From an uncultured Pirellulaceae bacterium (lineage in GTDB: Bacteria; Planctomycetota; Planctomycetia; Pirellulales; Pirellulaceae): a stretch of 42,089 bases of DNA. A program made the position numbers and the translations under genes. The number at the start of each line of letters is the position of its first letter. Positions within the stretch are counted from its first letter, which is position 1. Below the pieces are notes generated by a model. That model did not search any database. It was given only the letters and a program-made list of their open reading frames with translations, and was not told the DNA's origin. The stretch spans positions 1-42,089 of the forward strand of contig CALLUY010000089.1 of the NCBI GenBank assembly GCA_938010615.1, read 5' to 3'. Below, in pieces: positions 37,178 through 40,378 of this stretch.

Positions 37178-39016
37178 CTATCGGCCGCCTCCGCCTGTGG
37201 GTCGTCCGCCGCCTCCGCGTCCTCCTCTGCCTCCGCCGCCCCATGACTTCATGGCTTTCTTCATCGCTTCGACAACTTCATCTTTTGAGATGTCACCATC
37301 GCCATCAGTATCAGCGGTTGCGGCCCATGATTTGGAACGATCGTCCAAGCCAGCGACTTCGTCTTTGTCCAATTTTCCATCACTGTTCTTGTCACTGCGT
37401 TGCATGACAAAACCTGCGATCGTTGCCGCATCAGGACGTCCGCCGCCTCCAGCTCCTCCGCCTTGAGGGCGACCACCGCCAGCCTTTGCCTCATCCTTCG
37501 TTTCTTTTTTGGCATCTGCGACTGCAGCTTCAGCTTGATCTCCTGAGATTTCAATTCTCTTATCGAGCTTCACTTCAGGTAGCTCCATGAGATCTTTGTT
37601 GGCACCAGGATTCATGACGACATTTTCGCCTTCCTTGAGTCCCGACAGGATCCAAGCCATTTGAGAATTGTTTCCGCCGACTTCGACTTCGCGAGTTTCG
37701 AAACCGCCGTCGTCGTTCTTGACTAGACAAAACTGTTTCTCTTGAACGCCGTAGATGGTTTGGATCGGAACCATCAATGCATCGGCTTGATACTTTGATT
37801 GAATGAAAACGGACGCATTCATGCCCGGCTTAAGCGCTTCTGGAGGATCGATGATGCGAACCTTGACTGCGTATTTACGAACCGAAGAGCCACCCCAGCC
37901 GGCTGATTCGGCATACTGATTGACTTTCGTTACGACGCCCTTGAGAGTTCGGTCCGTCAGAGCATCCACTTTGATGGAAGCTGGCATGCCAGTTTCGATT
38001 TGCGTAATGTTCTGCTCGTTGATCAACGCTTTGACTTCCATTTTGTCGATGTCGGGAAGCCGAATCAAAACTTGTGATTCGCGAACGTTGGCTCCTTCTT
38101 CCAAAATCCATTCGTCGCCACCTCGCCCGCGTTGTTCTTTGGCGTACACGACCTGTCCGGAGATTCCTTCCGGAACGACGACTTCGCATTTCTTGATCAT
38201 CTCTTCAATTTCGGCCATCTGGTTTTCCTGAACCCGAAGAGCATCTTTTTCAGAATCCAATTTCACTTTGGCTGCTTCGATGTTGCTTTCGAGCTGGACT
38301 TTTTCCTTTTCGAGCGTGTACTTTTCGAGCACAGCCTTGTTTTGTTCGGCCATCGTTTTGATGTTTTTGTTACGCTTAAGATTGAGCTCCGCACGTGTTA
38401 CCGCAAACTCATCCGCATCAAGTTGTCTTTGGGTGATGAATCCTTTGGCTTGCAGGGCCCGGCTATGATTCAGGACATCGTTGGACTGTTCCAGTTCGGA
38501 TTTGGCTGTTTCGATCAAGCCATCGGCGTCAATGATCTGGTTTTCAAGATCCATCTCCAAAGCCTTGTAGGTTCCTTCCATGTACTCGGTCAACGTCGTC
38601 TTAGCAGTTTTGAGATTGGCATCCGCCTGAATAACAGTCGCCTTCGCGTTGGCGACGGTAATCCGCTGACTTTCACGTTCCTTTTCAAACGCCGTCGAAT
38701 CCAACCGAACCAAGAAGTCACCTGCTTTAACGCGAGTACCTTCGGGAACGAGGCTAATGACAGACAGCTGGCCATTGCGAGCACGAACTTCGCAGCGGAT
38801 CTCTACGTTTTCGCTACTTTGAATTTCGCCTTGATCGAGGACCTTGGCGACGAAGTCACCTTTTTCGACCGTCGCCATCATCAGGTTCAAATTTGGTTTG
38901 GCTGGACCGCTTTTGTAGTAGTACCAAGCAATCGCACCGATAACAGCACAGATCACGGCGCCGATAAGCAGCAGTGACGTTACGACGCCACGACGTTGGG
39001 GGATTTGGCGTTTCAT
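37178..39016 (-). CDS. HlyD/RND-type membrane fusion protein with C-terminal EF-hands
   Basis: 612 residues. One N-terminal membrane helix (SLLLIGAVICAVIGAIAWYYY), then the adaptor layout: lipoyl half (MMATVEKGDFVAKVLDQGEIQSSENVEIR), a long coiled-coil hairpin (about 120-280), the second lipoyl part (VVVPEGISGQVVYAKEQ), and a beta-barrel and proximal domain (MEVKALINEQNITQIETGMPASIKV, LKPGMNASVFIQS). After about residue 500 comes a tail unusual for the family: an Ala/Lys linker, GGGRPQGGGAGGGG, two EF-hand loops (DKNSDGKLDKDE at 542-553, DTDGDGDISKDE at 569-580) and a Gly/Arg end. Both loops have the usual Asp and Glu positions. It precedes the ATPase and permease genes. Confidence 0.9.
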   Translation of the reverse strand: MKRQIPQRRGVVTSLLLIGAVICAVIGAIAWYYYKSGPAKPNLNLMMATVEKGDFVAKVLDQGEIQSSENVEIRCEVRARNGQLSVISLVPEGTRVKAGDFLVRLDSTAFEKERESQRITVANAKATVIQADANLKTAKTTLTEYMEGTYKALEMDLENQIIDADGLIETAKSELEQSNDVLNHSRALQAKGFITQRQLDADEFAVTRAELNLKRNKNIKTMAEQNKAVLEKYTLEKEKVQLESNIEAAKVKLDSEKDALRVQENQMAEIEEMIKKCEVVVPEGISGQVVYAKEQRGRGGDEWILEEGANVRESQVLIRLPDIDKMEVKALINEQNITQIETGMPASIKVDALTDRTLKGVVTKVNQYAESAGWGGSSVRKYAVKVRIIDPPEALKPGMNASVFIQSKYQADALMVPIQTIYGVQEKQFCLVKNDDGGFETREVEVGGNNSQMAWILSGLKEGENVVMNPGANKDLMELPEVKLDKRIEISGDQAEAAVADAKKETKDEAKAGGGRPQGGGAGGGGRPDAATIAGFVMQRSDKNSDGKLDKDEVAGLDDRSKSWAATADTDGDGDISKDEVVEAMKKAMKSWGGGGRGGRGGGGRPTGGGGR

Positions 39017-39452
39017 TCAGGAACTCAGACAATCGGAATGGAAAATGAAGACGAGGAAGTTAAACAGAAAGTCTAACTGAAAAAAGCAGATTCCCATTGA
39101 AGAAATCGGCTCACGAGGCGTTGCTATCTCGCAAAAACAGGGCTATCGGGGCCAAGTTTACCGCGGCATGCCGGCGTAACTCGAAGGAAGCCTTCAACCG
39201 TCATTGAACCATTGAATCAACGGCAAGTTCCGCAAATAGATTCGCTGGGATGCCGCCACCGTAGTCACCTGAACAAGGCAGGCGCAAAAAAATCCCCTTC
39301 GTCTCATCCACGAAGGGGACATGAACCGTCGGAATACGTGGTTCGGTTATATATGTAAAGGATTGGCACTCGAGCCGACCAAAGATGAATCCTTGGTAAA
39401 TTCGCTACAACCGTGAAGCTTTCACGTTTGGCTCGTGTGATCCGGTCCCTGT
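39017..39452. other. Intergenic region between the adaptor and selenoprotein genes
   Basis: About 435 bases without a convincing gene. It holds a rho-independent terminator for the minus-strand selenoprotein gene (39286-39318) and a small perfect hairpin CGTGAA-GCT-TTCACG at 39412-39426. The promoter of the adaptor operon should lie in 39017-39280; no hexamer pair stood out. Confidence 0.4.
39286..39318 (-). terminator. Rho-independent terminator downstream of the HMA selenoprotein gene
   Basis: On the minus strand CCCCTTCGT/ACGAAGGGG (nine perfect pairs, seven-base loop) is followed by ATTTTTTT. It lies about 135 bases after the TAA at 39453 and supports a transcript that runs past both TGA codons. 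Confidence 0.88.
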
Positions 39453-39839
39453 TTAAGCTGATTTTTGATCACAGCTAAAACCAAGGCCGTCGATTGCCTT
39501 TTTTACTTTTTCAAGTGCTTCTGGATTAACGTCACCGTTAAGGATCAACGTCTTACCATTAAGATCAAACTCTACACCCGGTAGAGCCAGTTCGTCTAAT
39601 GCTTTACGAACTTTGGCGCCTCAGCCGCCTGGTCATGCCATACCTGAGATTGCCAGGCTGACCGGAGTCGTGCCTGTTGTAGCTGTCTCTGTGCCAGTGT
39701 CTGCAGGAGTGCTCATGCTAGTGTCAGCTGATGAAGTATCAGCTTCCGTCTTAGCAGGCGCTTCTGCACCACCGCAACCGAGACTCGCTACGCTGACTGC
39801 TACCATACAGGCAACAGCAACAAAGCGAATTAGTCGCAT
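39453..39839 (-). CDS. HMA-domain lipoprotein with two in-frame TGA (selenocysteine) codons
   Basis: 128 residues if both TGA codons (39635-39633, residue 69; 39623-39621, residue 73) are read as selenocysteine; a conventional reading ends at residue 68. A signal peptide with VASLGC (Cys22) and a Thr/Ser/Asp linker lead to a heavy-metal-associated domain at about 59-128: VSLAISGMA-U-PGG-U-GAKVRKALDEL, PGVEFDLNGKTLILNG and VNPEALEKVKKAIDGLGFSC. In relatives, GMxC..C or a CPxGC variant holds the two metal-binding cysteines; here both are TGA and everything around them is conserved. The frame then runs clean to TAA. AGGAGA lies six bases before the ATG. A SECIS-like hairpin and a terminator follow. 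Expected role: periplasmic or outer-surface binding of soft metals or redox chemistry. Confidence 0.82.
39586..39617 (-). promoter_or_regulatory. Putative bacterial SECIS hairpin
   Basis: In the mRNA, GCC-AA-AGUUCGU pairs with ACGAACU-GGC (ten pairs, AA bulge) around the ten-base loop AAAGCAUUAG. The loop begins 15 bases after the second UGA and 27 bases after the first, within or near the spacing reported for bacterial SECIS elements. The hairpin lies inside the coding frame, as bacterial SECIS elements do. Confidence 0.65.
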
Positions 39840-39844
39840 GTGAT

Positions 39845-39850
39845 TCTCCT
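39845..39850 (-). promoter_or_regulatory. Strong ribosome binding site of the HMA selenoprotein gene
   Basis: Minus strand AGGAGA, six bases before the ATG at 39839. This is one of the best Shine-Dalgarno sites in a window where many genes lack one, so the short lipoprotein start is real. Confidence 0.8.
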
Positions 39851-39872
39851 AATTGAGATAAATAATTGAGTC

Positions 39873-39887
39873 CACTTCTGTGAAGTG
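39873..39887. promoter_or_regulatory. Palindrome upstream of the HMA selenoprotein gene, possible operator
   Basis: CACTTC-TGT-GAAGTG, a perfect six-base dyad with three-base centre, 34 bases before the ATG at 39839. Position suits a repressor site over the minus-strand promoter. A second dyad TCAATGG/CCATTGA lies at 39911-39930. Confidence 0.35.
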
Positions 39888-40378
39888 AACCTCATTCATG
39901 ACTTGTCGGCTCAATGGAATCGCCCATTGACCGAAAAAGACATCGAACGATCAGTGTAAGCAATTCAACCCGCGGTGTAGCGATTGCGTCGTCAGTTACC
40001 GGCGAAAACAGGATAAATTGTCTGAATTTGTGGTCCTGCATCCCATTTTTGGGCGATTCAGCTAGGCATTTCCAAAAAAATCGTTGGGCAGCCACATTCG
40101 AACTCGGGACGTGACACAGATTCTTCGATGAATTAAGTTCCAAAACAGGCCTTCGTCGGCATTTCTCTTCTTGGCGCAAAATCGGCATTCAGTATCATCT
40201 CAGTTCGATTCGGTCGGAGAAATCGCTCGTTTCGATGTTGTTGTAGTATGTAGTGTGACCGTATTGGACCTTGAAAGAAACACGAAGAGCCTGATAGGAA
40301 ATTGAATTGCAGTGTTCGGATCGCCAGTGTTGGCTCGGATGAACTGCGACAGGGCGAATCAGTAAGACAGTTAAAAAT

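What the first reader, a model, noticed from the sequence alone, without database searches (positions are those of the whole stretch)
39453..39839. Hidden double-selenocysteine HMA lipoprotein (U-PGG-U)
Standard reading gives a 68-residue lipoprotein ending ...AISGMA. Reading on through TGA gives PGG, a second TGA, then GAKVRKALDELALPGVEFDLNG and a full HMA-like C-terminal half to TAA. Both TGA codons fall exactly where metal-binding cysteines sit in the GMxC/CPxGC motif, and no other stop occurs in 128 codons. Random nonsense mutations would not hit only those two codons and leave the rest intact. Both stops are UGA. Other genes here use TGA as a normal stop, so the code is not reassigned. 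Twin selenocysteines in an exported metal-binding motif would be a highly nucleophilic soft-metal site.
Basis: partly seen in the sequence, partly recalled or inferred. Interest (0 to 1): 0.95.

Follow-up and report, generated by a model that had tools for sequence, protein, structure and literature searches.

The report
Twin-selenocysteine lipoprotein sharing one RNA signal
A bacterial gene has two in-frame UGA codons at the two metal-holding positions of a heavy-metal-binding domain; both are likely read as selenocysteine with the help of one conserved RNA hairpin downstream, which would give an exported lipoprotein predicted to grip soft metals such as mercury or copper.

Summary
The double-selenocysteine reading is strongly supported. 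The genome has selA, selB, selD and tRNA-Sec. Relatives carry U-x3-U, U-x3-C, U-x2-C or C-x3-C at the same positions. UGA forms go with selA (48 of 56 listed genomes), stop-free forms mostly do not (16 of 89). A CGGGU-type hairpin (SECIS) follows in 20 of 20 family U-x3-U/C members read and in 0 of 11 Cys forms; over 28 distinct rows its six inner pairs are always paired, with 34 double-sided changes. A DNA pattern scan of 84,980 species found 24 double-UGA members, two in Myxococcota. The hairpin lies 46-52 nt after the first UGA, beyond the usual 16-37 nt, and a second hairpin usually sits between. I infer one "telescoping" SECIS serving both UGAs: spacer folded for the first, melted by the ribosome for the second. 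The product is predicted to be a lipid-anchored HMA protein holding soft metal through two selenolates. HMA selenoproteins are known (NF041115, UxxU); the papers searched listed no UxxxU family or such a SECIS. Nothing was tested at the bench.

The parts
39453..39839 (-). Predicted selenoprotein gene, 128 codons plus TAA; HMA-domain lipoprotein with predicted Sec at 69 and 73
   Evidence: translation with TGA=U; homologues with TGA or Cys codons at the same places
39846..39850 (-). AGGAG, Shine-Dalgarno-like, 6 nt before the ATG
   Evidence: read directly from the sequence
39774..39839 (-). Signal peptide ending in lipobox-like SLGC (Cys22)
   Evidence: sequence. A loose regex, [LIVAFSTM][GA]C in residues 9-60, hits 20 of 20 family UxxxU/UxxxC members; for this gene it stopped at an earlier VAC, and the LGC at 20-22 was read by eye
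39477..39656 (-). HMA domain (residues 62-121), predicted beta-alpha-beta-beta-alpha-beta
   Evidence: Pfam PF00403 32.0 bits; AlphaFold model, block pLDDT 84-94 from residue 61; PDB fold matches ZntA-N, Atox1, MerP
39633..39635 (-). UGA 1 (codon 69), predicted Sec at the first metal-ligand position
39621..39623 (-). UGA 2 (codon 73), predicted Sec at the second metal-ligand position
39589..39612 (-). Spacer hairpin (helix I): arms AGTTCGT/ACGAACT, 10-nt loop
   Evidence: inverted repeat; not significant in this gene alone (z -0.4 and -0.46), clear across the family
39570..39586 (-). SECIS hairpin (helix II): CUCUAC-CGGGU-GUAGAG; loop starts 52 nt after UGA 1 and 40 nt after UGA 2
   Evidence: inverted repeat; covariation; spacing
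39292..39320 (-). Terminator-like hairpin and T run about 130 nt downstream of the TAA
   Evidence: consensus scan, 11 pairs; not evidence of function; the same scan found no sigma-70-like promoter

Best explanation
Codons 69 and 73 of this minus-strand gene are UGA, lie at the two metal-ligand positions of an HMA domain, and are both likely decoded as selenocysteine under the direction of one downstream hairpin, so that the product would be an exported lipoprotein predicted to hold a soft metal ion between two selenolates. Shown by sequence: the two UGAs, the Cys/Sec-codon alternation in relatives, the Sec machinery, the covarying CGGGU hairpin, and a spacer hairpin across the family. Inferred, decoding: SelB with Sec-tRNA binds the CGGGU loop. 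With UGA 1 in the A site the spacer helix stays folded, so the loop is 18-31 nt away once the helix is counted out. When the ribosome reaches UGA 2 it opens the spacer helix, which starts 1-8 nt further on, and the same loop is then 34-40 nt away. Inferred, function: after export and lipid attachment at Cys22 the selenolate pair binds Hg(II), Cu(I) or a similar soft ion, as MerP, CopZ or Atox1 do with thiolates, more tightly than thiolates would, to trap it outside the cytoplasm or hand it on. No partner gene was found conserved beside it.
For: Machinery: selB 349.8 bits, selA 552, selD 262.6, tRNA-Sec 65.9 against a gathering score of 47. Homology: 62 distinct family members read sort into UxxxU 14, UxxxC 6, UxxC 31, CxxxC 11, CxxxU 0. 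SECIS: a CG[GU]GN loop 38-58 nt after site 1 with at least 6 stem pairs is in 14 of 14 UxxxU, 6 of 6 UxxxC, 0 of 31 UxxC and 0 of 11 CxxxC. In 28 distinct rows (of 39) the six inner pairs are paired in 168 of 168 cells, with 34 double-sided changes in three pairs; covariation score 0.574 against a shuffled mean of 0.157 (0 of 500 reach it) and at most 0.179 when slid. Codons: CCG 20 of 20 and GTA 20 of 20 in the hairpin; GTA is 29 of 196 Val codons elsewhere in the same genes. In four relatives from another planctomycete family the protein reads LPWV instead of LPGV but the hairpin stays. Independent scan: 24 of 34 pattern hits are HMA genes, 23 of them with the identical 31-nt gap although 25-45 was allowed. 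Spacer helix: 39 of 39 z-scores negative, mean -2.38, against synonymous-codon shuffles. Spacing: UGA 1 is in the 16-37 range in 39 of 39 with the helix folded and 0 of 39 open; UGA 2 (or its Cys counterpart) in 36 of 39 open and 5 of 39 folded. selA: 48 of 56 TGA-form genomes against 16 of 89 stop-free. Fold: HMA.
Against: No protein, RNA or selenium data. In this gene UGA 1 to loop is 52 nt and UGA 2 to loop 40 nt; UGA 1 comes into the 16-37 range only if the spacer is folded (22 nt), and UGA 2 misses it by 3 nt when open. The published review itself says a subset of putative bacterial SECIS fall outside that range, so the range is no firm rule and telescoping is not forced. The spacer helix of this gene alone is not significant (z -0.4), and its register shifts between lineages. 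One Cys form has an equally strong hairpin there (L101, z -2.94). In 6 of 9 members folded over the longer stretch the minimum-energy structure uses other pairings than the SECIS hairpin (it is kept in L009, L013, L022). Three of 20 UxxxU/UxxxC genomes have no selA hit over the cut-off (82, 71 and 89% complete). Not every UxxxC relative uses this SECIS: 1 of 8 among the phylum loci read. Sixteen of the 39 rows were found by the hairpin core itself, so that core is not independent there. The metal and the partner are unknown; no neighbour is shared beyond near kin.
Confidence: 0.72

Rival explanations
1. Two separate SECIS elements: the spacer hairpin (helix I) serves UGA 1 at about 24 nt, and the CGGGU hairpin serves UGA 2 at 34 nt. 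This is the textbook rule of one SECIS per Sec codon in bacteria.
For: Helix I loops lie 18-27 nt after UGA 1, inside the published range, and 14 of 39 have a G in the first two loop positions, the published minimum. Canonical-type hairpins sit at 25 nt in UxxxC relatives L121, L124, L128, L131. A review states that each bacterial Sec codon is followed by its own SECIS (PMC3541580, passages).
Against: 25 of 39 helix I loops lack that G, only 3 of 39 have the common G[GU] form, and the loop letters are not conserved, while the CG[GU]GN loop of helix II is. The seven long-reach UxxxC members have only UGA 1 and still keep helix II.
Confidence: 0.15
2. Sec is inserted, but the protein is a redox enzyme: U-x3-U forms a diselenide (or U-x3-C a selenylsulfide) that reduces periplasmic disulfides or peroxides, and metal binding is incidental.
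For: A review says almost all selenoproteins of known function act in antioxidant defence and most predicted ones resemble thiol oxidoreductases (PMC9312934, passages). In L012 and L017 a neighbour is a di-haem cytochrome c peroxidase.
Against: The predicted fold is HMA, not thioredoxin-like. Family members match CopZ, MerP and P-type ATPase models. The peroxidase neighbour is in two genomes of one genus only.
Confidence: 0.2
3. The UGAs are ordinary stops: the gene makes only the 68-aa lipoprotein, or is a decaying pseudogene.
For: Standard gene calling gives 68-74 aa products. No experiment shows read-through.
Against: The downstream half keeps the HMA domain and a covarying RNA hairpin across Planctomycetota and two Myxococcota MAGs. 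In the 62 members read the UGAs sit at the two Cys positions. UGA forms co-occur with selA.
Confidence: 0.03
4. UGA is read as Cys or Trp by suppression rather than as Sec.
For: The positions correspond to Cys in relatives.
Against: Full Sec machinery and a SECIS-like hairpin with covariation are present.
Confidence: 0.02

Closest known systems
NF041115 UxxU_metal_bind, metal-binding (seleno)protein (in PMC13188914: 'Metal-binding protein (putative mercuric reductase)', UxxU, 2 Sec)
   Same: HMA-like protein with two Sec; 13 of 15 members of alignment A1 match it at E up to 0.01, best 2e-10
   Different: This protein scores 19.7 against a cut-off of 95 bits; UxxU spacing, not UxxxU; its SECIS was not examined here
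NF045683 MerT/CopZ fusion-like heavy metal transport selenoprotein; MerP selenoprotein of the GOS survey (PMC2398784); Sec-containing E1-E2 ATPase
   Same: Sec in Hg/Cu-type transport or binding proteins
   Different: By name fusion or transporter proteins; ours is a stand-alone, probably lipid-anchored domain with U-x3-U
MerP, CopZ, Atox1 and ZntA N-domain (Pfam HMA PF00403)
   Same: Same predicted fold and ligand positions
   Different: Thiolate CxxC (recalled) instead of predicted selenolate UxxxU; no SECIS
Bacterial SECIS consensus (bSECIS model as told in PMC13188914, passages)
   Same: 5-nt apical loop with G in the second position, stem of 6-8 pairs
   Different: Loop lies 46-52 nt from UGA 1 instead of 16-37; a spacer hairpin intervenes; one hairpin appears to serve two UGAs
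Archaeal and eukaryotic SECIS serving several UGAs from a distance (PMC9499178, PMC3541580, passages)
   Same: One element, more than one Sec codon
   Different: Those mostly lie in UTRs, in archaea 70-1,500 nt away; this one lies in the coding region close by and is bacterial

Membership tests
Bacterial selenoprotein | In-frame UGA aligned with Cys in homologues | tested here: met
   C-x3-C in 11 of 62 distinct family members read
Bacterial selenoprotein | selA, selB, selD, tRNA-Sec in the genome | tested here: met
   all above cut-off
Bacterial selenoprotein | Conserved SECIS-like hairpin downstream | tested here: met
   20 of 20 UxxxU/UxxxC, 0 of 11 Cys forms; covariation 0.574 against 0.157 shuffled
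Bacterial selenoprotein | Selenium in the protein | not testable with these tools
   needs 75Se or mass spectrometry
Canonical bSECIS model (PMC13188914) | G in the first two loop positions; loop 3-9 nt; stem 4-16 pairs | tested here: met
   CGGG[UGC] or CGUGG loop, at least 6 pairs in 39 of 39 rows
Canonical bSECIS model (PMC13188914) | UGA to loop 16-37 nt | tested here: not met
   UGA 1: 46-52 nt in 39 of 39; second site: 34-40 nt, 36 of 39 inside, this gene 40
Canonical bSECIS model (PMC13188914) | Minimum free energy of -7.5 kcal/mol or lower | not tested
   helix II was not folded alone; with the spacer the nine family members folded give -11.0 to -18.5 (line 'full')
Pfam HMA PF00403 | Score above the gathering cut-off and beta-alpha-beta-beta-alpha-beta fold | tested here: met
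   32.0 against 24.8 bits; predicted model; PDB fold matches
Pfam HMA PF00403 | CxxC metal motif (recalled) | tested here: not met
   spacing is x3 here and in the Cys forms read; x2 in the UxxC branch
Pfam HMA PF00403 | Metal binding | not testable with these tools
   needs purified protein
NF041115 UxxU_metal_bind | Score above 95 bits | tested here: not met
   19.7 bits
NF041115 UxxU_metal_bind | UxxU spacing | tested here: not met
   U-PGG-U
MerP (TIGR02052) | Match to the model | tested here: not met
   no match for this protein up to E 1; 10 of 15 members of A1 match at E up to 0.01
Bacterial lipoprotein | Signal peptide and lipobox Cys | tested here: inconclusive
   SLGC at 19-22 departs from the recalled consensus at -3; no signal-peptide predictor was at hand; loose regex hits 20 of 20 UxxxU/UxxxC, 29 of 31 UxxC and 1 of 11 Cys forms

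The most novel reading that the evidence does not exclude
A telescoping SECIS: in bacteria one SelB-binding CGGGU hairpin inside the gene decodes two UGAs 12 nt apart. A spacer hairpin folds to bring the loop into reach of UGA 1 and is melted by the advancing ribosome to keep the same loop in reach of UGA 2. It arose when a single-Sec HMA ancestor gained a second Sec and its old hairpin at 25 nt became too close, turning that hairpin into the spacer.
Probability: 0.4. Interest if true: 0.9.

Novelty: new variant of a known kind. Interest (0 to 1): 0.76.

Why it matters
If true, a family of exported metal-binding selenoproteins is being cut to 70-residue stubs by gene calling in Planctomycetota and beyond. 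It would give a simple test case for how far, and for how many codons, one bacterial SECIS can act. It also offers a natural bis-selenolate metal site with matched Cys, Sec/Cys and Sec/Sec forms, so that the gain from selenium in soft-metal binding can be measured directly.

Tried and rejected
Rfam search of 39000-40200 found no SECIS or other family above its gathering score; the four listed hits (E 1.1 to 4.9) were chance-level. The search for related loci with the Cys-for-Sec protein in genome contigs matched 594 stretches and confirmed none, probably because TGA sites do not back-translate from C; I then used a DNA pattern. Ten of its 34 hits were chance: non-HMA frames, and none has the 31-nt gap. 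An operon or partner gene was sought by listing ORFs beside 24 loci and scanning 20 of the neighbouring proteins: HlyD, AAA, DinB, PAP2, MauG, WD40, FAD-binding, enolase-like and others; the same neighbour recurs only in pairs of near kin (MauG in L012/L017, DinB in L061/L063, enolase-like in L079/L080). TACCGKGNGTA occurs once more in the own genome (C25, L170); by eye its stem is only three pairs, so I do not take it for a SECIS. Helix I as a second SECIS was tested and lowered. Covariation for helix I was not counted column by column, because its register differs between lineages. Dropped rows: 8 of 70 loci and 5 of 29 gave no motif under my filter and are in no count; duplicates over 90 nt or 75 nt were merged. 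The selA comparison over 56 and 89 genomes uses only the rows that one search printed (145 of 215 matching genomes), classed by the first row of each, and is not corrected for kinship. The Cys control for helix I (11 sequences) had mean z -0.67 and one strong hairpin (L101), so that helix alone is not unique to Sec forms.

Full report
What is there. The gene runs on the minus strand from ATG 39839 to TAA 39453. Read with TGA as Sec it gives MRLIRFVAVACMVAVSVASLGC...SLAISGMA-U-PGG-U-GAKVRKALDELALPGVEFDLNG...SCDQKSA, 128 residues. The plus-strand frame is not open. An AGGAG lies 6 nt before the ATG and a terminator-like hairpin about 130 nt after the TAA; no sigma-70-like promoter was found. The 68-residue standard ORF stops at the first UGA. 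Residues 62-121 match Pfam HMA with 32.0 bits.

The host can make selenocysteine. The own genome (84% complete, 221 contigs) has selB with 349.8 bits, selA with 552 bits, selD with 262.6 bits and tRNA-Sec with 65.9 bits, all above the curated cut-offs. Contig G134:C165 (a genome of the same genus) has the same length, 33,331 bases, and the same protein as record CALFWR010000165.1, an uncultured Pirellulaceae bacterium, so the window's genome is most likely from that family; this is inference.

Both sites are Sec/Cys sites. A search of 149 family genomes gave 17 matches and a profile search of all 241 gave matches in 215. From the loci fetched I read 62 distinct members: 14 U-x3-U, 6 U-x3-C, 31 U-x2-C and 11 C-x3-C. 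None is C-x3-U: where there is one Sec it is at the first site, which I recall to be the more exposed ligand in HMA proteins. Among 392 genomes drawn from the phylum 239 match the profile. Of 29 loci from there 24 could be read; 11 have a UGA motif, 3 U-x3-U and 8 U-x3-C. Eight database proteins stop at the residue before UGA 1.

UGA forms go with selA. Of 56 listed genomes whose first listed match has an interior TGA, 48 have selA above the cut-off; of 89 with a stop-free match, 16 do (Fisher p 3e-16; kinship not corrected; 145 of 215 matching genomes were listed). For the motif-checked set: U-x3-U/C 17 of 20, U-x2-C 26 of 31, C-x3-C 1 of 11. The three U-x3-U/C genomes without selA are 82, 71 and 89% complete.

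One hairpin follows. All 20 family U-x3-U/C members read have a hairpin with loop CGGG[UGC], starting 46, 49 or 52 nt after UGA 1. The same test finds it in 0 of 31 U-x2-C and 0 of 11 C-x3-C members. Most code there for LPGV or VPGV, and the codons are constrained: CCG 20 of 20 and GTA 20 of 20. Three phylum U-x3-U members and one U-x3-C member from another family have loop CGUGG at the same 46 nt and code for LPWV: the residue changed and the hairpin stayed. In 28 distinct rows of 39, pairs 4/20, 5/19 and 6/18 have 12, 12 and 10 double-sided changes and no broken pair; the next outer pair is paired in 17 of 28. Over the 20 family members alone (16 distinct) the score was 0.504 against 0.167 shuffled. 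The U-x2-C branch has its own hairpin, in 20 of 31 with loop GGU[CU]C, 17 nt after UGA (by eye), also covarying (0.368 against 0.203).

A count of spacing. I scanned 84,980 species genomes for two TGAs 9 nt apart, a gap of 25-45 nt and TACCGGGTGTA. There were 34 hits. Twenty-four encode this HMA family; 23 have a gap of exactly 31 and one of 37; the ten others have no HMA frame, and their gaps differ (one of them also 37). Two of the 24 are in Kofleriaceae MAGs (Myxococcota), and both those genomes have selA. In the window's own genome TACCGKGNGTA occurs twice, once here.

The distance problem and the spacer. The published bacterial SECIS model puts the loop 16-37 nt from the UGA for most elements, and says a subset does not fit (PMC13188914, passages). 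Here UGA 1 is 46-52 nt away. Between UGA 2 and the SECIS lies a second hairpin: against synonymous-codon shuffles 39 of 39 members have negative z, mean -2.38, 33 below -1 (the 20 family members: mean -2.31, 17 below -1). Cys homologues have mean -0.67 (n 11; rank test p 9e-4, kinship not corrected), one of them strong. The spacer's loops are not conserved: 14 of 39 have a G in the first two places and 3 of 39 the G[GU] form. Counting the folded spacer out, UGA 1 comes to 18-31 nt (39 of 39 in range; 0 of 39 if open). UGA 2, or the Cys codon in its place, is in range for 36 of 39 with the spacer open and for 5 of 39 with it folded (for the 32 U-x3-U alone 29 and 5). The spacer begins 1-8 nt after UGA 2, so a ribosome with UGA 2 in the A site would have to open it (footprint recalled). 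Hence the telescoping model. It is inference. In this very gene the spacer helix (AGTTCGT/ACGAACT) is weak (z -0.4) and UGA 2 is 3 nt beyond the range. Over longer stretches 6 of 9 members have other minimum-energy folds.

A likely origin, inferred. Four U-x3-C relatives (L121, L124, L128, L131) have a hairpin of canonical type, GUGC-[GA]GUCU-GCAC, with the loop 25 nt after UGA, just where the spacer hairpin has its loop (23-25 nt in 26 of 39). A second Sec at +12 would leave that hairpin only 13 nt away. A new SECIS further down, with the old hairpin kept as spacer, would serve both.

Fold and function. The model (mean pLDDT 72; blocks 84-94 from residue 61 on; 23 sequences, 8 of them truncated) is beta-alpha-beta-beta-alpha-beta. 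Best PDB fold matches are ZntA-N, PacS-N and Atox1, with MerP lower in the list. A sequence profile finds copper-transporting ATPases, mercuric reductase and MerP. The N-terminus looks like a lipoprotein signal; a loose lipobox regex hits 20 of 20 U-x3-U/C members and 1 of 11 Cys forms. No neighbour is conserved beyond near kin. I commit to a lipid-anchored soft-metal trap or carrier. The metal is not known, and a redox role is the main rival.

Known or new. HMA-type selenoproteins are known: NF041115 (UxxU, two Sec) and NF045683 in NCBIfam, MerP and E1-E2 ATPase entries in surveys (passages of PMC2398784, PMC9312934 and PMC13188914). This protein misses the NF041115 cut-off by far. Searches for 'UxxxU/UxxxC selenoprotein' (0 papers), 'two UGA codons' with SECIS, 'SECIS metallochaperone', 'selenocysteine Pirellul' and searches listed no paper that I recognised as describing this family or a bacterial SECIS shared by two UGAs. 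One review says each bacterial Sec codon has its own SECIS (PMC3541580); sharing is described for archaea and eukaryotes.

What the check changed. On re-reading I replaced a circular '39 of 39' by the family count with its controls, added the looser loop rule for helix I (14 of 39), and corrected one citation. No probability needed changing.

Noticed in passing
window 37178-39016 (-): HlyD/MacA-type membrane-fusion protein with a C-terminal EF-hand (EF-hand_1 32.6 bits, cut-off 25.4), followed by ABC-transporter-like ATPase and permease ORFs (by eye); the EF-hand on such a protein looks unusual.
   Followed up: no
L078 (own genome, C107:44181-44441): A second HMA gene of the same genome with U-TG-C and its own CGUGC-loop hairpin 17 nt after the UGA: another predicted selenoprotein.
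   Followed up: partly
the 31 UxxC members, e.g. L014, L016, L019, L020: A large sister branch, U-x2-C, mostly lipoprotein-like, with a canonical-range GGU[CU]C or CGUG hairpin after the UGA.
   Followed up: partly
L107, L109, L122, L126 hairpin: Protein changed from LPGV to LPWV while the RNA stem and spacing stayed: RNA constraint seems to override the residue.
   Followed up: yes
L138 and L152 (Kofleriaceae MAGs): The same double-UGA gene and SECIS in Myxococcota, with selA in both genomes; suggests transfer or an old origin, or binning error.
   Followed up: partly
L012:248-1414 and L017:1996-3168: Di-haem cytochrome c peroxidase (CCP_MauG) beside the gene in two genomes of one genus.
   Followed up: no
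C-x3-C members such as L018, L025, L094: Cys forms mostly lack the lipobox Cys and may be anchored by a transmembrane segment instead (1 of 11 hit by the regex).
   Followed up: no
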